DNA from: Moniliophthora roreri
Taxonomy: Eukaryota; Basidiomycota; Agaricomycetes; Agaricales; Marasmiaceae
DNA: 64,000 nucleotides
Assembly (NCBI GenBank): GCA_001466705.2
Contig: LATX02000182.1
Coordinates: 372,001 to 436,000, forward strand
Reading direction: 5' to 3'
A model generated the notes under the pieces. It ran no database searches. It had not been told where the DNA came from and was given only the letters and a program-made list of their open reading frames with translations. Below are positions 1 through 62,350 of the stretch, piece by piece. Numbering within the stretch: position 1 is the stretch's first letter; every line of letters begins with the position of its first letter. Position numbers and translations under genes: made by a program.

Positions 1-3000
1 CAGGATGTTTGCAACAGCAAACATTTTGAGATTAACGGTACAGCTTACCAGTTCGCTCGGAGTAACCAGAGGTAATACCTGCGCACAGAGCGACACTATC
101 AAATTTACCTCTTCCAATAGCGCGAGAGAAGGGTCATCCGTCTCATTCTTCAAGAGTATGACTATAGTAGCACTGTGTCTTGAAAGGAAGTCCAAAACCT
201 GAAAATTCATGAATGGCAATTTCTACCGCGCGAAATATTATGGTAAAACCTGGTTGGAAGCTGTCGCGTGTTTTGCGCTGAGAGTGGCTAATAGAGCGTT
301 GACGAGTTGAAGACTGGGCATGAACAACTGATGATACCGCTGGACCGCAGAGGGTAAAAAGGTGTCACGATCTGAGTAGAGATTTCGTAAGTATGACAAC
401 TAACGAAGTACACTTGCATACGCACCGACGAAGGAAGAGTCAGCTTCTGGCCTAGCATCAAGATAATCACATTGTGCTAACGCAGGGATAAGCCGTGTCT
501 CAAGCAGACGCTCCGCACCAAGCCGCGTTTGTGCCATGCGAATAAACAATGACATCTTAGCCTCATAGACGTAAAGCGGATTAAGGTCGTCTGCAACGCA
601 ACATTGGCCAACAGCGTTTGATTCGAAGAAGTAAACTCACCAGGGTCTGGCTTCAGAACAGATTGTAAGAGGAAATCGGACTCGCTCAGGCCTTGTACAA
701 AGTTCGACAGGATACCATGGCGGACGAGGTGTAACGGCACCGGATGATTCTTGTCCAAGGCAGATAGTTGCACTAACGAGTCCAATAACATGAAGGCGAC
801 AGTCCGCCAAACCTCAGTGCCGTCAATTGCATCTCGAGAAATGATGACAACGAGACGCTCAAGGGAACTCTGCATGAGATTCAGACTGTTCGTCTGGATC
901 AAGTGGATTCCTCCCTGTTTTGATCTGCCCTGACTCCTGTGGGGAACGATAGCCATTGAGTCGCCGAAGGGGCTGTCTTCCCGCTTGCTAGACCATGCCA
1001 AGGCCAGCTTCGAGTCATTGTGAAGCGAAGGTAGGTCGGTAGAGGATGAGATGAGATAAATGTAATTGATGAATGAAGCGTAGAGGTTTCCGCGGACAAG
1101 TTCTACCCCGCTATTGTTGAGGATGCATTCTAGCATACTTCGAAGGATGGCGTACAATCGTTCGGCTGGTAATGCGCCAGAATCGGGATCACCACTCGCA
1201 GATTGAAGGATGATTTGATGCCGTCTGTCTTCGCGCAGCTTGGTAATGGAGGATAATATCACTTCCGAAAGCAGCACAGCAGTCGAGTCGTGTACATTGC
1301 CTGAGTTGATAATGGGAGGAAGGACGTGAAGAATGTCGAAGAGCATGTTTTCACGATGGTCATGGGGTAGTCGGTCAAAACACTTCGTAAGCGTGGTGTC
1401 AAGCAACCTTCGCCATGCTTCAAATCCGGTACTGGTGGCATGTATAACCTGGCGGCGATGGTTTTCGACAGCACAGCTCTCCAGTATGTAGTTTGTCTCC
1501 AGATTAAGCTGTTCCGCTTGGGCGGGGGTGACTATGCTGTTCTGAGCGAAGAGAGAACGACGAGCAGTTGTCAGCAGGGACAATAACTCTGTACGATCAA
1601 TAACGTCGCAACCGGAAGAATCCCTACGGACACAGGAAAGTAGGTTCAGTTGGCCCAGGAGCTGAAGTTCGACCGGTCGAACTTCCAATGTATCCGACCA
1701 ATCAAACGTGAGAGATTGGACAAACTCGATGATCCGTAGATGTGACTGTCCCACTTCCCGGAAAGGCCTCGACATTTCATCCTCCCATATATTTGCTTCT
1801 TCGATAGATGAATCGTTTCCGAAAAGAATGTCGAGTAGTTCTGCCACAGCGCCATGCTGTCCCTTGTTCGTGAGGACATGCAGGTCCAACGCAACAAGAT
1901 TGAAGATCCACGAACGCAAACGTAGGAATGCATTTAAGGTCGCTGTTGTCGTGGTTACACGAGCACCATCCTGGTATTGAACCTGGATGTACGGTGGTTC
2001 TTCGGGTCTCTCAGGAACTTGAGATGGGATGGCGGCTAAATGGCGAGCGAAAAAATCTTCTCTGGTGCGCAAGTACCGCATGGTAAAAGCCGATGTTCGT
2101 GGATGAACGCAGAGCTGGTGTATAACATGATAACACCGCTCCGCGAGCGCAGGAAGGAGTGCGAATAAAGGAGTGCTAGAGAGCTCATGACCGCGGCCCT
2201 TTCCCTTCAGAGTCGGAATACCAATTGATAGCAACTGCAAGATTACGTGAACACATGTTCTTCTCGCGCCTAATGCATGAGGGTCTTGAATGCCTTGTTC
2301 ACTGTTCGTAGAGCCAAACAGCAGGAAGTGCGCGAAGTTGGGATACGAGCGATTCGACTCTGTATTTTGAATGAGAAGGTCTAGAACCGCAAGTCTGATC
2401 GCTTGTTCAAGAGGTGTAGGGGGTTCATCCACGTCAGGTGCACCAGCACCAGTGACTTGCTCTGCAGTGGTTTCCGCTGCAGTAACATCCTCCGACGTTT
2501 CTGTCTCCAGGGCCTGCACGTATCCCATCAATATTCTATCCGATTCGTCACTTCGGTCTATCGATGTCGCCAGGTTGGTAAAGGCAGTGGATTTCGACAG
2601 TATCGTAAGTATCTTAACCGAAAGGAATACCACCTCGAAATGAGTGGGGTATGCCACATATGCTGCCAATGCGGGCACATGCTGAGGAACGAAGGATAGC
2701 GCTTGGTCGAGCCTCGTAAAGAATGATCGGGGGCGAATTGTCCCGACAAGAGGTGTACTATCAAAGTCGGAGAGCGTGGGAATCAGAACATCCAGGAAAA
2801 TATCCTGAATTTCCAACACGCGAAGGACGATTCGCAACACCCTGACGATTGTGCTCTCGAAATACGGCTCCTCCTTGGCAAGACCCTTGTCAAAGCCTTC
2901 AAGGCCTTCAACAACATATGAAATGATGGTCGTTTGCAGAGAGGTGGTGGTGTTGGTCAAAAGTCGTTGCAGGATATCGTAACCAGGATGGATGAGATAC

Positions 3001-5705
3001 GGAGTAATCACATTGTGCTTCAGCTCGCCAGATTCTGCAGCGGCGAGGAAGGACTCCAGGTCGTAACTGGCCAAGGCCCTCTCTATAAAGCAGAGACACA
3101 GGTCGTTCATCTGCCATCGCTCCGAGGGCCGCAAGAAGTCTCGATTGTGGATCTTTGAGAATACGTGATCTACCACAAAAGAAGTGAACGGACCGATTCC
3201 AGGTAGCCTGTACGGTTGACCCAAAGCATCTGGAATGGTATTTATAGGCACGACCTCCGTGACGCGATCTTTGAGAGGGATCCGTTTAGGTGTATGGATG
3301 AGAGTACTGAGCAGCTTCAAGAAGGGTATAGTTGCTGGATAAAGGCCATGGTGACCCTCAATTTCGTCGAGCTCAACTTCAACCCCTTTGCCTGGGCGGA
3401 CAGTCATTGTGTACCCTGCAGATGGTAGAGGTCGAACATTGATAACTTCCAACTTCTCCATCAACGTCCAGACTGCTCTACATATCTCCAAACCGGGGAT
3501 ACCTGCGCCTGGTTGACAGAATGCCGACAGCGTCTCGAAAAGCATTCCCTTGAGCTCCAACGGAACACTGAGTGGAATGAGAGACACCAGGGTAGGAATC
3601 GCTCGGAACTGGGTATGACCAGAGATGGCCACTCGAACTGCCACAGAGTGGGTCACAACTGCAGACATCAAACGAAGGAATGACTGCGCGAGTAAGACAT
3701 CTTTTGGCCCGATCGTCAGTTCAGGATGATGTCGACTCTGATGCTGGTATGTGGACTGATTCACTCCAGACTGTGACAGGGAGTGGTTGGGAGCTGTACG
3801 CACAGTAGCATTCGACGCCCATGCATCCAAAAGCCCAAATATGACATCCCACGACACGGCTGATCCATTTCCGGCATTGGGTAGCGAGCTTCCTGGAATG
3901 ACTTCACCGCCACCTCTGGCCATGAAATTGTAAGCCAGTTCACTGCAGTGTTGGCCTTTCGCTAGTCCAGCCAGCATGTCGAACAGAGCCATGGTCATCG
4001 TGGCATCATGTGCCTGTGTAGACCAAACAGCCCACTGAAGGAATGCAGGTAGGCGTCCCGCACTGGTTTCGAGTAACTCCAGATAGGTTGGAGGAGTTTC
4101 TGCTTGTGGCCCAGCACCCCAGAATTGAAGAGCAGACTCTTCGGGGAGAGAGCTGTACAGGAGGCCAATGAAAGAATACAGTAAGGCTATATCGTTCCGA
4201 GGTGGGGTCCTCTCGCCCTCTTGAGTAACACTGCCACCAAAGCGATTAGGTGCACGAGAGCGATCACGGGCATCGGCGAGAACAAGATCCTCTTGGCGCT
4301 GCTTTATTTTCCGCAATTCCGAAGATGCATGTGTGATCAACAGCCGAATTAGGGTCTCAAACGCAGTGAGAATAGGCATGCGAAAATCGTCCGAAGGTAC
4401 TTCTCGATGTTCCTGCTGTTCCGTTGAGGGAACAAGGTTCACCATCAAGGACGGGATGTTGAAACCACCATACCGCCGCTGCAGCTGAAGAACAGCAACA
4501 CCCAAATACGTGAACAGGTCGCCCTGTACAGCGTTCCATATCTGATTTTCCAGTTCTTCAGTACGAAAACCATCACGGTTCTCGAGCTGAGGATTGTTAT
4601 GGCGATGAGCTGCAAGGAATAGTGTCCATTTGAGAAGAATGGTAGCTTTTAGTCCCTGCTCCCTCCATTGTGACGTAGGTGACAACTTTTGGGTCATGAA
4701 GGTGAGGTTGCCCTGGTCATTCGCAAGCAAGCTCCGGTATTTCCCACTCTGGCTTTGGGGATCCACGGGGTCAAATGCAGCGAGTATAGCGGTGAGCATG
4801 TAGTAGCTCATGGAGTGGTTGGGGTTGGCTTGAAGCCACTCCACAATGACCTTAACTTCGTTTGGTGAGCACCAGCCGAGGCGAGCGAGAATGTAAAGTG
4901 ATGTAGCAAGTGTCCTACGCTCATATTTGAGTGAGTCGTATCGAGCATTGAGGATGTCAGCACCGAGAGATGGTGATCCTGCAATAGGTCAGTTGTCTGA
5001 AAGGTGGTCATACGATGACCACGTACCTTGACCTACTGGAGGTATGAAGGTATCACTCCTCGCATTTTTTCTGGCGGCATCTGCTCTCGAAAGAACATTT
5101 CCTAAGTTCTCTATCTCCCTAAATATCCGGTAGGCTATGGGGATAACGCCACCAGCCTGTCGTTCTGGAGGCAGTATTTCTGTGCGAGCAAAGTGGCCGA
5201 TATGTTGGAATAGTGGAGAGGCATCTTCATATTCCGCCATTTCAGTAGCTTGGAATAGATAACGTAAACAATCGGCCAAGTCTCGTCTCCTCTGGTGGAA
5301 TTCGGAAACCGTCAACTCTATGCAACGAACGGGATCAAGGTTGGGATTTTCACTCATTACTGAGTGAAGCAGCCCTGCAACGTAGCGTTCCGAACATTCG
5401 AGTTGCTGAGAGAGGAAGATGACTTGTCGTGCAAAGTCCGAGTTAATGGCGACCTTCTTGCCATTGATGACCGTTTTACCTTTGGATGAACTTAGCGCAA
5501 TTTGCTGGGTAGAAAGATACATGTTGAGCGCACCGGACTCTATCTCTTTCTGTTGCTCAACATCTCGGATACCCACATCGAATACCTTGACCAAACGCGG
5601 TTTGTGAATGATCAACTCGTCAAACACCTCCTGTTCTGCATACTGCGACCCCCGATTATCCAAAGCATTGATTAGAACTGCACGTAAACGAGAAATTGTC
5701 TCCAT
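1..5705 (-). CDS. NUP192: Nucleoporin Nup192/Nup205, 3' end beyond the window
   Basis: Large inner-ring scaffold nucleoporin of the nuclear pore complex, an all-helical solenoid binding Nic96/Nup93-type partners. The first exon (5705-5027) opens at an ATG and has the family's N-terminal helices. Intron 5026-4979 joins it to one very long exon (4978-641). Then come introns 640-591, 425-372, 249-199 and a donor at 48, each keeping the frame open. The tail after the third intron has the LQLVNALLATLS-type repeat followed by QVLDFLSRHSATI, as in Nup205 C-termini. The start is the first in-frame ATG; an extra upstream exon cannot be excluded. The gene is cut by the left window edge. Identification rests on overall similarity to remembered Nup192/205 features, not on one catalytic motif. 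Confidence 0.9.
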
Positions 5706-50485: not shown

Positions 50486-51104
50486 TGTTACGTTACTTGC
50501 GCAGCAATGACAACAACTCAACAACCACTATTATGTAGCGGCGCTAAGTTGACAAAAGGAGCAAGTTCAAGTTTGAGTTCTTCAGCTTGCGCTAAAGTTC
50601 TCAGAGTTCAGTCGAGATGAGCAAGGAGTCCAAAGGGTTAACTAGGTCAAGCTGAGGTAGCTTAGACCTACAAACTATCTACTTATACAACAATTGTAGC
50701 TATTAGTTTGTGTACAAACTGCTAGATCGACATTGTTTGTTTAGCAAATAGAATGTACCTTTGACAACATGATAAATAAGAGAATGACATCAGAAGTGAT
50801 GTCGAGGAAACAAAAATAAATATGATGATACAATAAGCGACGTCAGAAATGACATCACATCATAAATAGAAAGGAAAAGAATCGAATAGAATAATGACGT
50901 CAACTTGATGTCATGAATGACACAATGATGATGTCTTAAATATGAAGATAGGCATAAAATTGGAAAGGGGAACCGGGAATGTGGATGTGTCCAGATGTTA
51001 ATAAGAAGCATAGGTAAAAAAAGGAAAATAGCGCCTAAGAGCGCTAAAGTGTCCAAGCAGTGATTTTGAAAGAAAAGATAGCCTGTAAACATACAATTGT
51101 AACA
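50486..51104 (-). mobile_element. Element B LTR 1 (leftmost, 3' LTR)
   Basis: 619 bp, TGTTAC...GTAACA. The sense strand is minus, with the polypurine tract ACAGGGGGTAA just right of 51104. It contains a bZIP-type CRE palindrome TGACGTCA at 50895-50902 and several imperfect copies between 50780 and 50945. It is 619 bp in LTR 2 also, and 618 bp in LTR 3. Confidence 0.92.
50644..50687 (-). promoter_or_regulatory. LTR TATA box and self-primer box
   Basis: On the minus strand TATAAG starts at 50687. 32 nt later (50655) begins TCAGCTTGACCT, the exact complement of the element's primer-binding site. The distance fits Pol II initiation, so the box would be the 5' end of the transcript, as in Tf1 self-priming. 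The same arrangement occurs in the other LTRs with 32-33 nt spacing. Confidence 0.75.
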
Positions 51105-51127
51105 TTACCCCCTGTTCATGTTCGAAC

Positions 51128-52092
51128 TTACACGTTCGAAGCTATCAGTTGTCCTTCTACGAGCCATTCTCCTCCCCATTGCGCTTCTCTTACCACTGTC
51201 TCTCGGTCCAAACACCTAAAAATTCTTGGTCCCTCTGGGGATCCCATGTCGACGACGATCCCGTCTCCCAATGGCGGGTCTTGCGGCCTCTCACTGCTCT
51301 CCATTTCCATAGTCGGGGTCGTCCCATGTGGTATCATCTCTCCAATCGTGGTCAAGAGTCAATGTACCGCCGGTATCGTTTCGTCTTGCAGTTCTCGTAG
51401 ACCTTCTTCTGTCCCTACAATATCCAGGGAGATGGCCAGCTTTAGCAGTGTTGCAAACCGGGCAGACATAGTCCACACAGTCGACGGCGCAGTGCTCTCC
51501 CAATTTGCACACAGGACATTCAACTCCTCCTGGACTTCGTCAAGCAGCGCTGTAGTATGCGTTATACGATCGCTTGACGTCAAGCCGACTGGCGAAGCCG
51601 TGTCGTCCGGCTCCGCGTCCTCGTCGTCCCACACCGATACGGTAGGGACGTTGGGTGTCTGGATTGATTGGGATAACAGGGGAGGGGAGGCGTACGGGGT
51701 TCGGGAGTTCCGGAGAAAGTCGTGCTCTCTGGAAGGTGGTGCTGGAAGGTTCGGTCGTACTGAAAGTGGTGGGGGGGAGTTCATGGCCGGCAGACATTGC
51801 GGGCGGGGTAGTAGGAGGGGAGACATCGGGGAATTTTCCAGCCCTTCTGCTGGCGTCGGAGACGTCGGACTCGTCACTTCTGGAATCGTCGACAATGGGG
51901 AATGGATTGGGGAAGAGTAGGGTTCGCTGGTCGGCAGGTAGACTGCTGACCCCAGCGATAGGAGTCGGGCTTCTTCGGCTGGTAGATGCATCCACGCGTC
52001 TGGATGGGTTGGTCTGGGAGAAAGAGGAGAAGGGGATTGGGGTCTGAATCGTTCCAATGCAGCGCTGTCTAAGTTGGAGGAGGTGCTGGCCT
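51128..52092 (-). pseudogene. Element B copy 1 accessory ORF, cut at an N
   Basis: Same sequence as the 3' part of the accessory ORF in copy 2: a Pro/Ser-rich region followed by a segment with ALLDEVQEELNVLCANW, a TGA at 51361-51359, then the end at 51128 with WGGEWLVEGQLIASNV. The upstream half is lost at the N junction. Any ORF reading through that N into integrase is artificial. Confidence 0.6.
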
Positions 52093-52093
52093 N
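52093..52093. other. Single-N assembly junction
   Basis: The left side matches copy 2 up to 58199, the right side matches it from 59104. The N therefore hides a roughly 904-bp jump. Confidence 0.9.
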
Positions 52094-53360
52094 ATTTTGG
52101 AGATGGGTATCCTAGCGACAAGTTCTTTCCTTCTAGCCAGACTTTCTGGCCCTTCTCGAACCTGTCTAAGTCTTTTCTGCTTCTTTCTTTCACCCTTCTT
52201 GCGGCAATGTCTAGTAAGGCTGATGTTTCTTCTCTCAGCTTCTTCAATTCAGCCACTCTTTTCTCCACAGAAGGAATGGTCGTCTTTTCGAAAATAGTGG
52301 GGAGAGGTCGGGGATGATATCCCATCGTGAGATAGAAAGGGGAATTTTTTGTAACTGAATGCGTTCGGGTATTGTGTGCAAATTTGGCAAAGTGGAGGAG
52401 ATCTTTCCATTTCGTTTGTTCCTTGGCGCAAAAGAATCGAAGAAAGATTTCTACTTCTTGATTGACCCTTTCAGTTTCTCCATCCGTTTGAGGATGATAA
52501 GTGGTACTTAGCATTTGTTTAATCCCCAATAACTTTCCCATTTCTTTGAAGACTTCGGCTGCTAATTGCGGGTCTCGATCTGAAATAATCTTGTCGGGTA
52601 ATCCAAAGCGCTTGTAGACATGTTGAAAAAGTAGCTCTGCTGTATCTGTGGCGTTGATCTTTTTGTGGCATGGGATGAAAATCACCCCCTTCATAGCCAC
52701 GTGGTCGACCACGACCAATATGGAATCATAATCTGCAACCTTGGGTAGATCTGTGATTAAATCCATCGATATGATCTGGAACGGCAACACATCTTTATGA
52801 CCCCCAATGGGTTGTAGAGGCGTCCACGTTGGATGTGTGTTCACTTTCATTTGTTGGCATGCAGCGCACCCATCAACAAATGATTTGATGAACTTTGTCA
52901 TTCCTGGCCACCAATAGTCTCTTTGCACCTGATCAACTGTGTTCCATTGTCCAGGGTGTCCATAAGGTAAGGCTTCATGGATGGTCTTGACGACCAATTG
53001 TCGTAACATTGGGTCGTTCGGAACATAGACTCTGTCTTTGTAAAACAATAGGTTTCCCTCGGTTCTCCAGTCTTGTAGAGATGATTTGATCAGTGGCATT
53101 CCTTTCTCAATGAGGCTTTCTATTGTCATTTGAAGGAATTCATCTCCTGGCAAGGCATCCTCCAATATGGTTTTGAGTTCTGCATCAATCACGTTAACAA
53201 ATAACTTATCTGGTAGCATGACGATGTCATCGTTGTCGTTTTCTTCTTTGTCTATTAGATCCAGTTGTCTTGAAAGTGCATCGGATTGAACCATTTTCGT
53301 TCCTGGAACATGCACTAGTCGCAGGTCAAATTGAGTCAGGTATAGGCTCAATCTAGCTTG
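52094..53360 (-). pseudogene. Element B copy 1 integrase and end of RNase H
   Basis: From the RNase H end (YLTQFDLRLVHVPG) through the HHCC zinc-binding region (HEALPYGHPGQWNTVDQVQ, CAACQQMK) and the DDE core: SMDLITDLP, IISDRDPQLAAEVF and HPQTDGETERVN. The catalytic D, D and E are all present. It is separated from RT by a TGA at 53363-53361, and truncated by the N at 52093 before its chromodomain. Confidence 0.88.
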
Positions 53361-54371
53361 TCATTGATTCAACTTCTGTGCAGTCCAGAAGTAAGTCAAG
53401 TTCTTGTGATCAGATAGGACGGTCACCGGGTGAGCTCCTCCCAGGAGATAGTGTTCCCAGGCCTTCAGGGCGTTCGTGATGGCCAAAAGTTCGCGGTCGT
53501 AGATTCCGTAGTTCCGTTCAGTTGCGGTGAACACATGGGAGATATATCTGCATGGGTGCAATTCGCCGTCGGAACCCTGTTGTTTCAATACCGCTCCTGT
53601 GGCCCATTTCGAGGTGTCTGCTTCAATTATGAAGGGCTTCTCGTCGTCCGGCATTTGTAAAATTGGTCGCTGTGAAAATTTTGCTTTGAGAACATTGAAC
53701 GCAGTGTCTCGCACTTTCGTCCATTCAAATTTCATGTCTTTCTTTGTTAACTCGTGTAAAGGTTGCACCAATTCCACGTATTTTCCTATGAACTTGCGAT
53801 AGAAATTCGTGAATCCAAGGAACGATTGCACACCTTTGATTGTTTTAGGCACTTCCCAATCCTTTATTCCGGCTAATTTCGTTTCGTCCATCAAGATGTG
53901 TCCAGGTGTGATGACCATACCCAAGAATAACATCTTCGTGACTTCGAATTCGCATTTCTTCGGTTTGAGATATAGATCGTTTTCCTGCAACTGTTCTAGA
54001 ACGTGTCTCATGCGAAGTTGATGGATATTGATCTCGTCAGAGAATATCAAGATGTCGTCCATGTAGACCATGCACCAGCCTTCATTGATGAAGTCTTTGA
54101 GGATGTCGTTCATGAATGCTTGGAACGTTGCCAGGGAATTCATTAAACCGAAGAACATAACCATAGGTTCGAAGAGACCTCGAGGCGTTTTGAACATGGC
54201 TTTCCATTGGTCTCCGTCTTTGATCCGTATATTGTTGTATCCGTTTCGTAAGTCCAACTTCGTAAAGATCTTGGCTGTCTTTAGTTTGTCCATGAGGTCT
54301 GTGACCAATGGTAAAGGATAACGGTTCTTGATCGTTCCGTTATTCAGATCTCGGTAATCTTGGCAGGGTCA
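53361..54371 (-). pseudogene. Element B copy 1 reverse transcriptase / RNase H
   Basis: RT palm with [30 protein letters not shown] (catalytic YMDD intact), [12 protein letters not shown] and the RNase H start [20 protein letters not shown] and [12 protein letters not shown]. Interrupted by stops at 54371-54369 (before [10 protein letters not shown]) and 53363-53361. Both look like CGA to TGA changes. Confidence 0.9.
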
Positions 54372-54566: not shown

Positions 54567-55304
54567 TCATGAAGGTGGAAATCGTTCAGCTTTCTTCTTT
54601 TCAAATCGATCCGCATAATCGGAAAGATAGGCGGGAAGAAGTTCTTCCAATGGTTTCACTTTGACCTCATGAGCCTGTGCCAATACCTGAGAAGCGGATA
54701 ACTTAGCGTTGATTCGAACTTCATCGCTGTCTTCTTCTCCTTTGATGAAAGACCGAATTAAGACTTCATCGTCTTCAACTTTATCCAATATTCCAGTGTC
54801 CAATTCCTTCGTTTCATCGAGGATTCCAATAAATGGTTTCACCGGTCGTCTAACCATAATCTTTCGCCTAGGTCAGAAGTGGACTACTCCGGTGACCCAA
54901 TCAATATCTGGATTGTGATCTTGAAGCCAAGGTAATCCCAAAATGACTCTTTCCAGTCCTAATCCTGAGATCAACAAAGTTTCCTTCATTGATTTATCCC
55001 CGATTGTGATGTCGATTGTGATGGAGTGAGTGATCCAACCAATTTTGTTCCGGGTTCCATCAACGTTGAAGACCTTGATGGGTTTTTCTAGTCTTGTCCA
55101 GGGTTTCTTGAGCTTCCGTGCTTCTTCTTCACAGATGAAGCGTCCTCCAGCACCTGAATTGATCAGGGCTTTTGTTTCGATGATCTCTGTCCTGACGTTG
55201 TATTGAATAGGTATTTGCATAGAGTTTCGATTTAACTTAGCTAGTACAACGTTCGAGATCGTAATTGCAGGTGGTAAGAGCATCGGCCTCTTCCACCTCT
55301 TCAA
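54567..55304 (-). pseudogene. Element B copy 1 protease region, inactivated
   Basis: Retropepsin-like segment IIETKALINSGAGGRFI, followed by LERVILGLPWLQDHNPDIDW. The catalytic Asp-Ser-Gly reads Asn-Ser-Gly, and the following Thr of DSGAT is Gly. A TGA at 54875-54873 separates it from a linker running to 54567. It overlaps gag by 4 nt. Confidence 0.82.
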
Positions 55305-56560
55305 AAACCCTCCTTTCCCATGAGATCAAAGATCTCCTCTTGTTCTCCTTCTCCTTGTTCGGCAATAAGCGCTCTGATCTTTGTGAAAGCTTCTCGCAGT
55401 GAGAGCTTCTTTGGTTTGTATTTCGGTGGTGGGGTTTGTGCTTGTCCTTTGGTGGGACAATCTCGTGAGATTTGACCAGTCTTCGCGCAACGGAAACACT
55501 TCCCTGCAACCATGTAGTCCTTTCTATCAGATTCAGACAACATTTGTCCAACTGTTACTTCTTTCTCCTTCCGGGTGATCTTCGGCTTGATCGGCTCTTT
55601 CTTCTTTCTATTAGCCATGACCAACTTGTACTGGTTGTTGTATCTGATCGCCAGTTTGTACCATTCGTCCAAGGTTTCAGGTTCTCCATCCGTTTGGAGC
55701 ATGATCTTGTTTTGTAGAGATTCTGGGAGTCCTTCTCTAAAAAATCTCATCAGAGCTTCGTCATCATATTTGGTGTCCATCGCAATGAGGCGGAATTGAT
55801 TGACATATTCGTCGGCTCTGTCCGTCATCTTGATTTGTTCGATTTTCGCCTGTGCTTCTCTGACAACGTTGACGGATTGCCATTCGTTTCGAAATCTCTG
55901 TTTGAAACTGCTCCACGTTTCTTTGGCAGCCTTCTTCTTCTCCACGGGGTCGTCGTCTTCAGGGAATAATTTCATCGTCTCCCTCTGCTTCCATTCACTG
56001 GTGTTTCCCTTTACCAGCAATAAAAGAAGCATCTTCTTCTTCTCATCAGTGTTCGCCTTGACTGGGTTCATTGCGAAATATAATTCGAGGTCGAGGAGGA
56101 ATTGGCGGGTGTCTGATTGTTTTCCTAAAAAGGGGTCCGGAGTTGGCCCTTTACTGGCTTCGTCCTTCTTGTCATCGATTGTCTGGAGTACGGCCGTGGA
56201 AATAGTCCAGGCCCATTGTTCGTCGGCATCGTCGACTTCTACCTTCAGTTTGACATCTAAAGCTGCAGCGGCGCTTTCACTAGGAGTCGTCATTTCTGGA
56301 GTCGGGGTATGGAATAAATTCCGAAATTCGTCAAATAAATCTGGTTTGGAAGACTCAGCTTCAGGTTCTGTTCTTTCTTGTTGGAGACTTTCGACTGCTC
56401 CTCTCCGCTGACTACGAGTAATTCAGCACAGGGTCTGTTCGGGGTCGGGGTTCAATAGCTGTTTGGCTACTTCGAGTTGATCGTCAAGATCGGCTTCTTC
56501 GGCTGCCGTAAAGGGAGCCCTCGGGGGAGTTGTGTTTCGATAAGCGGTGATGCCTAAACC
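55301..56560 (-). pseudogene. Element B copy 1 gag
   Basis: Capsid-like helical region (LELYFAMNPVKANTDEKKKM, TWSSFKQRFRNEW, RADEYVNQFRLIAM), then a C-terminal zinc knuckle CFRCAKTGQISRDC in which the expected His is Gln. A TGA at 56425-56423 breaks the N-terminal part. The first in-frame ATG of the intact part is at 56293; no ATG is obvious near the primer-binding site. Confidence 0.85.
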
Positions 56561-56592: not shown

Positions 56593-57211
56593 TGTTACGT
56601 TACTTGCGCAGCAACGACAACAACTCAACAACCACTATTACGTAGCGGTGCTAAGTTGACAAAAGGAGCAAGTTCAAGTTTGAGTTCTTCAGCTCGCGCT
56701 AAAGTTCTCAGAGTTCGGTCGAGATGAGCAAGGAGTCCAAAGGGTTAACTAGGTCAAGCTGAGGTAGCTTAGACCTACAAACTATCTACTTATACAACAA
56801 TTGTAGCTATTAGTTTGTGTACAAACTGCTAGATCGACATTGTTTCAAATCGTTTATCTTACATGGAAACTGTTGTACTATTTATTCTCTTACTGTAGTC
56901 TTCACTACAGCTCCTTTGTTTTTATTTATACTACTATGTTATTCGCTGCAGTCTTTACTGTACACATCATAAATAGAAAGGAAAAGAATCGAATAGAATA
57001 ATGACGTCAACTTGATGTCATGAATGACACAATGATGATGTCTTAAATATGAAGATAGGCATAAAATTGGAAAGGGGAACCGGGAATGTGGATGTGTCCA
57101 GATGTTAATAAGAAGCATAGGTAAAAAAAGGAAAATAGCGCCTAAGAGCGCTAAAGTGTCCAAGCAGTGATTTTGAAAGAAAAGATAGCCTGTAAACATA
57201 CAATTGTAACA
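56593..57211 (-). mobile_element. Element B LTR 2 (shared, mosaic, altered)
   Basis: 619 bp, same ends. It serves as 5' LTR of copy 1 and 3' LTR of copy 2. Left of 56720 it shares variants with LTR 3, right of about 57000 with LTR 1. Between these lies a 117-bp block of base-complemented sequence. Confidence 0.92.
56846..56962. other. 117-bp block that is the unreversed complement of the sister LTRs
   Basis: Every base from 56846 to 56962 is the Watson-Crick partner of the base at the same position in LTR 1 (50739-50855, constant offset 6107) and in LTR 3 (61986-62102). Order is preserved. Flanks on both sides align normally with no gained or lost base. The reverse complement does not match. 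Confidence 0.97.
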
Positions 57212-57234
57212 TTACCCCCTGTTCATGTTCGAAC

Positions 57235-58711
57235 TTACACGTTCGAAGCTATCAGTTGTCCTTCTACGAGCCATTCTCCTCCCCATTGCGCTTCTCTTAC
57301 CACTGTCTCTCGGTCCAAACACCTAAAAATTCTTGGTCCCTCTGGGGATCCCATGTCGACGACGATCCCGTCTCCCAATGGCGGGTCTTGCGGCCTCTCA
57401 CTGCTCTCCATTTCCATAGTCGGGGTCGTCCCATGTGGTATCATCTCTCCAATCGTGGTCAAGAGTCAATGTACCGCCGGTATCGTTTCGTCTTGCAGTT
57501 CTCGTAGACCTTCTTCTGTCCCTACAATATCCAGGGAGATGGCCAGCTTTAGCAGTGTTGCAAACCGGGCAGACATAGTCCACACAGTCGACGGCGCAGT
57601 GCTCTCCCAATTTGCACACAGGACATTCAACTCCTCCTGGACTTCGTCAAGCAGCGCTGTAGTATGCGTTATACGATCGCTTGACGTCAAGCCGACTGGC
57701 GAAGCCGTGTCGTCCGGCTCCGCGTCCTCGTCGTCCCACACCGATACGGTAGGGACGTTGGGTGTCTGGATTGATTGGGATAACAGGGGAGGGGAGGCGT
57801 ACGGGGTTCGGGAGTTCCGGAGAAAGTCGTGCTCTCTGGAAGGTGGTGCTGGAAGGTTCGGTCGTACTGAAAGTGGTGGGGGGGAGTTCATGGCCGGCAG
57901 ACATTGCGGGCGGGGTAGTAGGAGGGGAGACATCGGGGAATTTTCCAGCCCTTCTGCTGGCGTCGGAGACGTCGGACTCGTCACTTCTGGAATCGTCGAC
58001 AATGGGGAATGGATTGGGGAAGAGTAGGGTTCGCTGGTCGGCAGGTAGACTGCTGACCCCAGCGATAGGAGTCGGGCTTCTTCGGCTGGTAGATGCATCC
58101 ACGCGTCTGGATGGGTTGGTCTGGGAGAAAGAGGAGAAGGGGATTGGGGTCTGAATCGTTCCAATGCAGCGCTGTCTAAGTTGGAGGAGGTGCTGGCCTT
58201 TGGAGACCTCAGTTGCTTGTTTGAGACCTCTTCGATGGGCGATAACCTTCCGGAGGAAGGCTGGGTCGTTGGGGCTGACGTCGTCGTCCATAGCGAAGCG
58301 ATCTCCATTGGGATCTGTGTCTGGGAGTACTATATGAAGCGGTAAGTTTGCTATATCAAGAGTAGGACGTGGTACTGCTATAGCCCCAGTGACAGTGAAA
58401 GTCTCGTCGTCCATAATGTGTTGGGCCAACATGCCCATGTGTCGATCCATTCTGGTTACGTTTTATAGAAGTTGTCGTCGCTGTCCACGAAGGAAGACTA
58501 GGCTACTGTAAAGCGCACGGTTCCTCTCACTGCTGGCGTTGATAGCAGTTGTCAGTTCCTCGTCGTCATGTTTGCAGTTCATAAGATAAAGGAGTTTGAA
58601 CGTAGAGGGGTGAAAAGGTTCAGTGTGGACAGCGTTGTCCAGGAAAACTTGAGCTGGAGGGTCGAAGGGGGGTAGGCCAGTTTGGACAGAAGGGTTCATG
58701 TAGGAAGACAT
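57235..58711 (-). pseudogene. Element B copy 2 post-pol accessory ORFs
   Basis: Starts 21 bp after the pol stop with MSSYMNPSVQTGLPPFDPPA. One frame runs from 58711, with a TAA at 58465-58463, to 57647. A second frame is open from 58308 to 57235 with a TGA at 57468-57466. The two overlap by about 660 nt, and both are Pro/Ser-rich. The first ends in a Gly/Arg-rich tail (GRRGRGAGRHGF), the second in WGGEWLVEGQLIASNV just before the polypurine tract. A frameshift or intron could join the first part to the second frame. No known domain was recognised. Confidence 0.6.
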
Positions 58712-58732: not shown

Positions 58733-60293
58733 TCAACACAGGTTGTACTTGATTTTATATTTCAAGTACAACTCCATCGAATGCTTTAAGCCGGCTGGCT
58801 TCAGCCATTGATTGTGTGATGAGTTGTATCCTTTCCAGGAAACAAGGTATTCCTTTGGGGGTTGATTTTTCCTCTTTGGTCGATGTCCGATGATAGCTTC
58901 GACTTCGTATTCTTCTTGTCCTTCAACTATGTCTGGTGGTGGTTCCAGAAAGTTGGGTCCGTGGACGTCGGTTTCCTTGAATGGCGACAAAAGTCCAGCG
59001 TGGAAAACAGGGTGGATTCTCCATTGAAATGGGAGTTTCAGCCTGTACGTCACGGGTCCAAGGACTTCTGTGATTTCGAAAGGTCCTTTGCGTTTTGGGG
59101 ATAATTTTGGAGATGGGTATCCTAGCGACAAGTTCTTTCCTTCTAGCCAGACTTTCTGGCCCTTCTCGAACCTGTCTAAGTCTTTTCTGCTTCTTTCTTT
59201 CACCCTTCTTGCGGCAATGTCTAGTAAGGCTGATGTTTCTTCTCTCAGCTTCTTCAATTCAGCCACTCTTTTCTCCACAGAAGGAATGGTCGTCTTTTCG
59301 AAAATAGTGGGGAGAGGTCGGGGATGATATCCCATCGTGAGATAGAAAGGGGAATTTTTTGTAACTGAATGCGTTCGGGTATTGTGTGCAAATTTGGCAA
59401 AGTGGAGGAGATCTTTCCATTTCGTTTGTTCCTTGGCGCAAAAGAATCGAAGAAAGATTTCTACTTCTTGATTGACCCTTTCAGTTTCTCCATCCGTTTG
59501 AGGATGATAAGTGGTACTTAGCATTTGTTTAATCCCCAATAACTTTCCCATTTCTTTGAAGACTTCGGCTGCTAATTGCGGGTCTCGATCTGAAATAATC
59601 TTGTCGGGTAATCCAAAGCGCTTGTAGACATGTTGAAAAAGTAGCTCTGCTGTATCTGTGGCGTTGATCTTTTTGTGGCATGGGATGAAAATCACCCCCT
59701 TCATAGCCACGTGGTCGACCACGACCAATATGGAATCATAATCTGCAACCTTGGGTAGATCTGTGATTAAATCCATCGATATGATCTGGAACGGCAACAC
59801 ATCTTTATGACCCCCAATGGGTTGTAGAGGCGTCCACGTTGGATGTGTGTTCACTTTCATTTGTTGGCATGCAGCGCACCCATCAACAAATGATTTGATG
59901 AACTTTGTCATTCCTGGCCACCAATAGTCTCTTTGCACCTGATCAACTGTGTTCCATTGTCCAGGGTGTCCATAAGGTAAGGCTTCATGGATGGTCTTGA
60001 CGACCAATTGTCGTAACATTGGGTCGTTCGGAACATAGACTCTGTCTTTGTAAAACAATAGGTTTCCCTCGGTTCTCCAGTCTTGTAGAGATGATTTGAT
60101 CAGTGGCATTCCTTTCTCAATGAGGCTTTCTATTGTCATTTGAAGGAATTCATCTCCTGGCAAGGCATCCTCCAATATGGTTTTGAGTTCTGCATCAATC
60201 ACGTTAACAAATAACTTATCTGGTAGCATGACGATGTCATCGTTGTCGTTTTCTTCTTTGTCTATTAGATCCAGTTGTCTTGAAAGTGCATCG
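58733..60293 (-). pseudogene. Element B copy 2 integrase with chromodomain, cut at an N
   Basis: Complete integrase: zinc-binding and DDE regions identical to copy 1, KLSPKRKGPFEITEVLGPVT, HPVFHAGLLSPFKETD and a C-terminal chromodomain (EYEVEAIIGHRPKRKNQPPK, YLVSWKGYNSSHNQW), ending KIKYNLC. RT, RNase H and protease are missing at the N at 60294, where the reading frame jumps into gag. Confidence 0.9.
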
Positions 60294-60294
60294 N
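60294..60294. other. Single-N assembly junction
   Basis: The left side corresponds to copy 1 at 53283, the right side to about 55761. About 2.5 kb (RT, protease, gag C-terminus) is jumped. Confidence 0.9.
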
Positions 60295-61108
60295 CGTCGT
60301 ACTTTGTGTCCATCGCGATAAGGCGGAATCGATTGACGTATTCATCGGCTCTGTCCGTCATTTTGATCTGTTCGATTTTGGCCTGCGCTTCTCTGACAAC
60401 ATTGACGGGTTGCCATTCGTTTCGGAATCTCTGTTTGAAACTGCTCCACGTTTCTTCGGCAGCCTTTTTCTTCTCTTCAGGATCGTCGTCTTCGGGAAAT
60501 AACTTCATCGTCTCCCTCTGCTTCCATTCACTGGTGTTTCCCTTTACTAGCGACAAGAGAAGCATCTTCTTCTTCTCATCGGTGTTCGCCTTGACTGGGT
60601 TCATTGCGAAATATAATTCGAGGTTGAGGAGGAATCGGCGGGTGTCTGATTGTTTTCCCAAAAAGGGATCAGGAATTGGCCCTTTGCTGGCTTCGTCCTT
60701 CTTGTCATTGATTGTCTGTAATACGGCCATGGAAATTGTCTGGGCCCATTGTTCGTCGGTATCGTCGAGTTCTACTTTCGGTTTGACATCCGAAGCTGCA
60801 ACAGCGCTTCCACTCGGAGTCGTCATTTCTGGAGTCGGGGTATGGAATAAATTCTGAAATTCGTCAAATAAATCTGGTTCGGAAGACTCAGCTTCGGGTT
60901 CTGTTCTTTCTTGTTGGAGACTTTCAACTGCTCCTCTCCGCTGGCTATGAGTAATTCGGCGCGGGGTTTGTTCGGGGTCGGGGTTCAATAGCTGTTCGGC
61001 TACTTCGAGTTGATCGTCGAGATCTGCTTCTTTGGCTGCCGTAAAGGGAGCCCTCGGGGGAGTCGTGTTTCGATAAGCGGTGGTGCCTAAACCTGGGTAG
61101 GTCGGCAA
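60295..61108 (-). pseudogene. Element B gag N-terminal part, second variant
   Basis: Gag without the zinc knuckle, open to 61108 (a TTG, not ATG). It differs from copy 1 at many silent and some coding sites and lacks the TGA that breaks copy 1. It therefore comes from a different, less damaged element. Confidence 0.8.
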
Positions 61109-61125
61109 CGATCAGCTTGACCTTT

Positions 61126-61200
61126 TGTTATGTTACTTGCGCAGCAACAACAACAACTTGTCAACCACTATGACGTAGCGGCGCTAAGTTGACAAAAGGA
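61126..61200 (-). mobile_element. Fragment of an element B-type LTR
   Basis: First 75 bp (left end) of a divergent LTR, TGTTATGTTACTTGCGCAGC..., next to a primer-binding site at 61112-61123. It stops at the N at 61201. Confidence 0.8.
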
Positions 61201-61201
61201 N
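61201..61201. other. Single-N assembly junction
   Basis: Joins an LTR fragment to mid-gag sequence, which cannot be contiguous in an intact element. Confidence 0.9.
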
Positions 61202-61732: not shown

Positions 61733-62350
61733 TGTTACGTTACTTGCGCAGCAACGACAACAACTCAACAACCACTATTACGTAGCGGTGCTAAGTTGAC
61801 AAAAGGAGCAAGTTCAAGTTTGAGTTCTTCAGCTCGCGCTAAAGTTCTCAGAGTTCGGTCGAGATGAGCAAGGAGTCCAAAGGGTTAACTAGGTCAAGCT
61901 GAGGTAGCTTAGACCTACAAACTATCTACTTATACAACAATTGTAGCTATTAGTTTGTGTACAAACTGCTAGATCGACATTGTTTGTTTAGCAAATAGAA
62001 TGTACCTTTGACAACATGATAAATAAGAGAATGACATCAGAAGTGATGTCGAGGAAACAAAAATAAATATGATGATACAATAAGCGACGTCAGAAATGAC
62101 ATCACATCATAAATAGAAAGGAAAAGAATCGAATAGAATAATGACTCAACTTGATGTCATGAATGACACAATGATGATGTCTTAAATATGAAGATAGGCA
62201 TAAAATTGGAAAGAGGAACCGGGAATGTGGATGTGTCCAGATGTTAATAAGAAGCATAGGTAAAAAAAGGAAAATAGCGCCTAAGAGCGCTAAAGTGTCC
62301 AAGCAGTGATTTTGAAAGAAAAGATAGTCTGTAAACATACGATTGTAACA
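61733..62350 (-). mobile_element. Element B LTR 3 (rightmost, 5' LTR)
   Basis: 618 bp. It lacks one G of the CRE (TGACTCA instead of TGACGTCA). Its right end GTAACA abuts element A pol. The first bases of A after it and before LTR 1 form an imperfect 5-bp duplication (ACAGC/ATGGC on the minus strand). Confidence 0.9.

What the first reader, a model, noticed from the sequence alone, without database searches (positions are those of the whole stretch)
56846..56962. 117-bp LTR segment replaced by its base-by-base complement without reversal
Aligned at a constant offset to LTR 1 (50739-50855) and LTR 3 (61986-62102), every A is T, T is A, G is C and C is G, in the same 5'-3' order. Flanks match normally on both sides with no indel. 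Inversion would give the reverse complement, which does not fit, and no known replication, repair or recombination route gives an unreversed complement. It also lies where LTR 2 changes from LTR 3-like to LTR 1-like, so it may be a contig-joining or gap-filling error, or a deliberate edit.
Basis: seen in the sequence. Interest (0 to 1): 0.95.

Follow-up and report, generated by a model that had tools for sequence, protein, structure and literature searches.

The report
Assembly blocks complemented but not reversed

Summary
56846-56962 is the unreversed complement of 50739-50855 and of 61986-62102, 117/117, with 0/117 plain identity and colinear near flanks.

It is not alone. The window lies in a 59.4-Mb, 154-contig genome of Moniliophthora roreri. 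An all-against-all scan of 258,884 bases gave five such blocks, and complement-letter queries with four repeat stretches gave six more. That makes 11 blocks of 22-117 bp on 10 contigs, in a Ty3/gypsy element and in other repeated DNA. Ten have colinear flanks on both sides; one has only its left flank.

Within the limits of these queries no two copies share a block position. Two other base swaps gave no case, and neither did in-place reversal or true small inversion once palindromic matches were dropped. A complement query of E. coli 23S DNA matched nothing in 5,426 genomes.

Best reading: a sequence-handling fault, complement without reversal, in assembly, filling or finishing. Program and step are unknown; no reads or second assembly could be checked. 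A deliberate edit of this window alone is refuted. Real parallel-strand copying is very unlikely.

The parts
56846..56962 (.). 117-bp block that is the unreversed complement of the matching LTR segment
50486..51104 (-). LTR 1, TGTTAC...GTAACA ends, normal letters
56593..57211 (-). LTR 2, contains the block; left part identical to LTR 3, right part identical to LTR 1
61733..62350 (-). LTR 3, normal letters
50739..50855 (.). normal partner segment in LTR 1
61986..62102 (.). normal partner segment in LTR 3
51540..53351 (-). open frame with the integrase part of element 1 (Integrase_H2C2; rve below its cut-off), crosses the N at 52093
53361..54308 (-). open frame with reverse transcriptase and RNase H of element 1
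55301..56293 (-). open frame with gag of element 1
58733..61108 (-). open frame of element 2 with Integrase_H2C2, SH3_Tf2-1, Chromo and Retrotrans_gag matches, crosses the N at 60294
52093..52093 (.). single N; compared with element 2 about 0.9 kb is missing here
60294..60294 (.). single N at the end of an exact 1,190-bp duplicate
61201..61201 (.). single N between two stretches that overlap by 606 bp at 91.9%
56963..58199 (.). exact duplicate (1,237 bp) of 50856-52092
59104..60293 (.). exact duplicate (1,190 bp) of 52094-53283
60295..61200 (.). 906-bp piece between two Ns, 100% identical to C122:139627-140532

Best explanation
The block is an artefact of how this genome sequence was built. 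Somewhere in assembly, gap filling, patching or consensus making, short blocks (22-117 bp in the 11 seen) were written as the complement of the right sequence without being reversed. That is what results if a minus-strand patch is complemented but not reversed, or is reversed twice. Shown: the exact complement relation, its recurrence on 10 contigs, normal letters in the sister copies compared, and the specificity for this one transform. Inferred: that it happened in software and at which step. Unknown: the program, and whether single-copy DNA is affected.
For: 117/117 against 0/117. Eleven blocks of one kind on contigs C84, C145, C69, C122, C127, C7, C128, C92 (two), C75 and C109. They lie in a Ty3/gypsy element (8 of 11), in another high-copy repeat (2) and in a three-copy sequence (1), so they follow no single element. 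No shared position was seen: complement queries of the LTR, gag, RT and repeat stretches hit each block position once, and for C127 both other copies are normal. Where a sister copy is nearly identical there is no later mutation: C145 41/41 with flanks 500/500 and 499/500, C127 22/22 with flanks 500/500 on both sides, C84 117/117 with LTR 3 500/500 on the left and LTR 1 500/500 on the right. At C122 the block brings a stop into the gag frame; at C69 the gag match begins only beyond the block. Two other base swaps gave 0 pairs against 146 for complement. In-place reversal and true small inversion gave 6 and 230 pairs, and 0 after matches with plain identity of 0.6 or more on the diagonal (palindromes and mirrors) were dropped. 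Signs of patchwork assembly nearby: exact duplicates that end at single Ns and a 906-bp piece used twice. E. coli control: no match in 20,395 records.
Against: No reads, no deposited record and no second assembly could be compared. Blocks at C69 (L028) and C128 (L034) lie in copies about 10% diverged from the relatives held, with no N in the held flank, and the C122 (L030) block lies 5.6 kb from the nearest N, so a gap at the block is not shown. Of 11 blocks 7 have an N in the held stretch, at 0.6-5.6 kb, and 4 have none: no proof of a link to gaps. Two blocks in different copies (C122, C128) meet at the same element position, 55620|55621, which a random fault would not favour. Only repeats could be tested, and the complement queries are not fully sensitive (one search missed the known C122 block).
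Confidence: 0.92

Rival explanations
1. The letters were altered after deposition, in a later copy of the file, by accident or as a genome-wide alteration, and the deposited record is normal.
For: The deposited record could not be seen; the window and G000 carry the same letters, but they come from one source.
Against: No positive sign. Known blocks per stretch differ: 6 in the gag stretch (158 first-look candidates) against 1 in RT (457), 1 in the LTR (329 for a 401-bp LTR query) and 2 in the other repeat (474). A uniform alteration would not favour gag, but sensitivity differs between queries and only 40 candidates were scored in each, so this is weak.
Confidence: 0.06
2. A real, unknown process copies or rewrites short DNA blocks in parallel orientation, giving an unreversed complement in the chromosome.
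For: Eleven sharp blocks in one genome, in several kinds of repeat, and one shared edge position in two copies.
Against: No polymerase or recombination route known to me makes it (recalled). No block was seen in a second copy, although first-look candidates number 158 to 474 for four of the stretches. No decay against nearly identical sisters. None in E. coli 23S DNA of 5,426 genomes.
Confidence: 0.015
3. A local contig-joining or gap-filling error at this locus only.
For: The block lies in the stretch where LTR 2 changes from LTR 3-like to LTR 1-like, and exact duplicates and single Ns surround it.
Against: Ten other blocks lie elsewhere, so the cause is not local.
Confidence: 0.005

Closest known systems
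Complement (C) matches in the sense of REPuter, reported in organelle genome papers
   Same: Same formal relation: one copy is the unreversed complement of another.
   Different: What I recall of those reports are free-standing short matches. Here the block replaces a colinear segment inside a longer repeat. Of such papers I saw only a search listing with abstract starts.
Assembly or gap-filling patch errors
   Same: Private to one copy, no decay, and at the window's locus single Ns and reused pieces.
   Different: The strand errors I recall give a reverse complement; six phrases for an unreversed one found no paper in the library searched.
Small chromosomal inversion
   Same: A short block differs from its sisters between colinear flanks.
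   Different: An inversion gives the reverse complement, which fits only 45/117.

Membership tests
Ty3/gypsy chromovirus (the element that carries the block) | gag, reverse transcriptase with RNase H, integrase with H2C2, chromodomain | tested here: met
   over elements 1 and 2 together; the Chromo match is in element 2; rve is below Pfam's cut-off
Ty3/gypsy chromovirus (the element that carries the block) | long terminal repeats with TG...CA ends | tested here: met
   LTR edges read (TGTTAC...GTAACA)
Ty3/gypsy chromovirus (the element that carries the block) | short target-site duplication at the outer ends of the array | tested here: not met
   the five letters outside LTR 1 and LTR 3 differ (GCCAT and GCTGT), as can be expected for a rearranged or wrongly assembled array; element membership rests on the genes and LTRs
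Small inversion | block equals the reverse complement of the sister copy | tested here: not met
   45/117; 0 non-palindromic cases in the 272,878 bases
Complement repeat (formal class) | block equals the unreversed complement of the other copy | tested here: met
   117/117
Gap-fill or join error | block coincides with a contig join or former gap | tested here: inconclusive
   nearest N 3.3 kb away; no assembly history available
Sequence-record artefact | absent from raw reads and independent assemblies | not testable with these tools
   no reads or second assembly on hand
Sequence-record artefact | not inherited by sister copies | tested here: met
   each block position hit once by complement queries; sensitivity is limited, since the known C122 block was missed

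The most novel reading that the evidence does not exclude
Short chromosomal blocks in Moniliophthora roreri are really rewritten as parallel complements by an unknown process acting on repeated DNA.
Probability: 0.015. Interest if true: 1.

Novelty: not a real feature. Interest (0 to 1): 0.3.

Why it matters
If it is an artefact, this assembly carries a recurrent kind of error that can break frames, invents divergence between repeats and is missed by tools that look only for inversions. The scan used here (find colinear flanks, then test complement letters) would detect it in any genome with repeats. If it were real, it would contradict the antiparallel rule of DNA copying.

Tried and rejected
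Chance match: rejected, 117/117. Inversion or reversal: rejected. Edit of the window only: rejected, 11 blocks on 10 contigs. Retrotransposon-specific cause: rejected, since three of the 11 blocks lie in other repeated DNA: C145 and C109 in one high-copy repeat and C127 in a three-copy sequence. A second copy carrying the C84 block: none found; L005, which first looked like one, is normal. Blocks at N gaps: not supported. Finding the program: Minio et al. 2023 (PMC10468315; outline with abstract, passages, and sections 8 and 27 seen) describes M. roreri long-read assemblies of 11-21 contigs and short-read ones of about 4,200, so the source of this 154-contig assembly stayed unknown; searches were seen as listings with abstract starts only, and the 2014 M. 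roreri genome paper listed (PMC3948071) was not read. Literature for an unreversed complement: one search found 0 papers for six phrases; the listings showed nothing that fits. Single-copy genes: only the part of Nup192 held (window 43-5705) was compared with a second M. roreri sequence and showed no block; at the rates seen this has almost no power. In one search a guessed place in L035 (1657-1682) was normal; the second block there is at 1345-1370. The E. coli query had no positive control with normal letters. Two slips stand in notebook entry 3: searches gave five new blocks, not six, and the 26-bp C92 block is at C92:623257-623282.

Full report
What is there. Window 56846-56962 is the letter-by-letter complement, in the same order, of 50739-50855 and 61986-62102: 117 of 117, with 0 of 117 plain matches, 45 of 117 for the reverse complement and 22 of 117 for reversal. 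Edges are sharp. The scan with exact seeds of 16 listed no other unreversed-complement match inside the window.

The locus. The three repeats are LTRs with TGTTAC...GTAACA ends of a Ty3/gypsy chromovirus on the minus strand: gag, RT/RNase H, integrase and, in element 2, a chromodomain. They form a chain LTR 1 - inside - LTR 2 - inside - LTR 3. LTR 2 equals LTR 3 on the left and LTR 1 on the right, and the block lies in the stretch between the separating bases 56717 and 57006. That pattern is what an unequal exchange between LTRs gives, and also what an assembler gives that walks an LTR loop twice; I cannot tell these apart. The second reading gains from the surroundings: the only three Ns of the window are single letters at 52093, 60294 and 61201. 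Exact duplicates of 1,237 and 1,190 bp end at the first two, and the 906-bp piece between the last two is identical to C122:139627-140532.

The genome. The window is C84:372001-436000 of a genome of 59,427,881 bases in 154 contigs. In the part of the Nup192 alignment that was printed (residues from about 60 to 1802 of the Moniliophthora roreri MCA 2997 protein) one residue differs, intron and exon edges aside, so the species is M. roreri. Which assembly it is stayed unknown.

Recurrence. The block itself is found once in the genome. But an all-against-all scan of the window and loci L012-L032 (258,884 bases; seeds of 16, low-complexity seeds and spans over 400 bp left out) for unreversed complements with colinear flanks gave 64 pairs that come down to five distinct blocks. 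Queries with the complement letters of four stretches (LTR, gag, RT, another repeat) gave 1, 5, 1 and 2 matches, six of them new. The full list, with edges set by the majority of colinear relatives where there were several, is: C84 117 bp; C145:204056-204096 41; C69:32598-32651 54; C122:140674-140709 36; C127:268117-268138 22; C7:11232-11285 54 (one colinear relative only); C128 from 192410, 54; C92:623413-623464 52 (right edge uncertain by one base) and C92:623257-623282 26; C75:2722-2776 55 (one position inside equals the relatives); C109:425029-425075 47. For C109 the script found no relative colinear on both sides. Against L025 the block is 46 of 47 by complement and 0 of 47 plain, the left flank is 48 of 60 and the right 14 of 40, so only the left flank fits. 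The gag query missed the known C122 block, so these counts are lower bounds.

Controls. The same scan on 272,878 bases with the two other base swaps gave 0 pairs against 146 pairs for complement. In-place reversal and true small inversion gave 6 and 230 pairs at first, and 0 once matches with plain identity of 0.6 or more on the same diagonal, that is palindromes and mirrors, were removed. A 1000-base complement query of E. coli 23S DNA found no match at E <= 1 in 20,395 records of 5,426 genomes; these are finished bacterial genomes and no positive control was run, so this speaks for rarity in general and not for fungal drafts.

Artefact or biology. No shared block position was seen, although first-look candidates number 329 (a 401-bp LTR query), 158 (gag), 457 (RT) and 474 (repeat) (only 40 were scored in each). 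Blocks whose sisters are nearly identical are themselves perfect complements. In C122 the block puts a stop in a gag frame that shows no other stop in the match; in C69 the gag match begins only beyond the block, and that copy has another stop outside it. Copies without a block exist. Blocks lie in the retroelement (8 of 11), in a different high-copy repeat (2) and in a three-copy sequence (1). A process that made and kept such blocks in the living genome should have left some that are shared and some that have decayed; none was seen. Together with the lack of any route known to me (recalled), this makes a fault in sequence handling by far the best reading. Which program, and at which step, is inference only.

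Against this reading. No reads or second assembly could be consulted. Blocks are not at Ns: 7 of 11 have an N in the held stretch, 0.6-5.6 kb away, and 4 have none. Some lie in diverged copies that should assemble uniquely (L028, L034). Two blocks in different copies meet exactly at element position 55620|55621, for which I have no explanation; among a dozen edges in 1 kb of gag a chance coincidence of this kind is of the order of several percent (my estimate).

Verdict.

Noticed in passing
window 55620/55621 (element coordinates): The edge of the C122 block and the edge of the C128 block fall on the same element position, one block to each side; near-palindromic letters surround it.
   Followed up: partly
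window 60295-61200: A 906-bp piece between two single Ns is 100% identical to C122:139627-140532, as if one contig had been used twice.
   Followed up: partly
window 52093, 60294, 61201: The gaps seen are single letters: 27 N runs in loci L010-L032, the longest 1 base (L010 and L011 include the three of the window). At 52093 and 60294 exact duplicates end right at the N.
   Followed up: partly
window 56718-56845: The left flank of the block is identical to LTR 1 for exactly 128 bp after the last separating base, a length that may be a word size of an assembler.
   Followed up: no
L035 1345-1370 and 1501-1552 (C92): Two complement blocks lie 130 bp apart in one gag copy.
   Followed up: partly
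L040 1501-1547 (C109): A complement block 234 bp from the end of the held stretch; its right flank does not match the relative L025.
   Followed up: partly
window 43-5705: Part of a Nup192 gene (minus strand, with introns, running off the window), nearly identical to the M. roreri MCA 2997 protein.
   Followed up: yes
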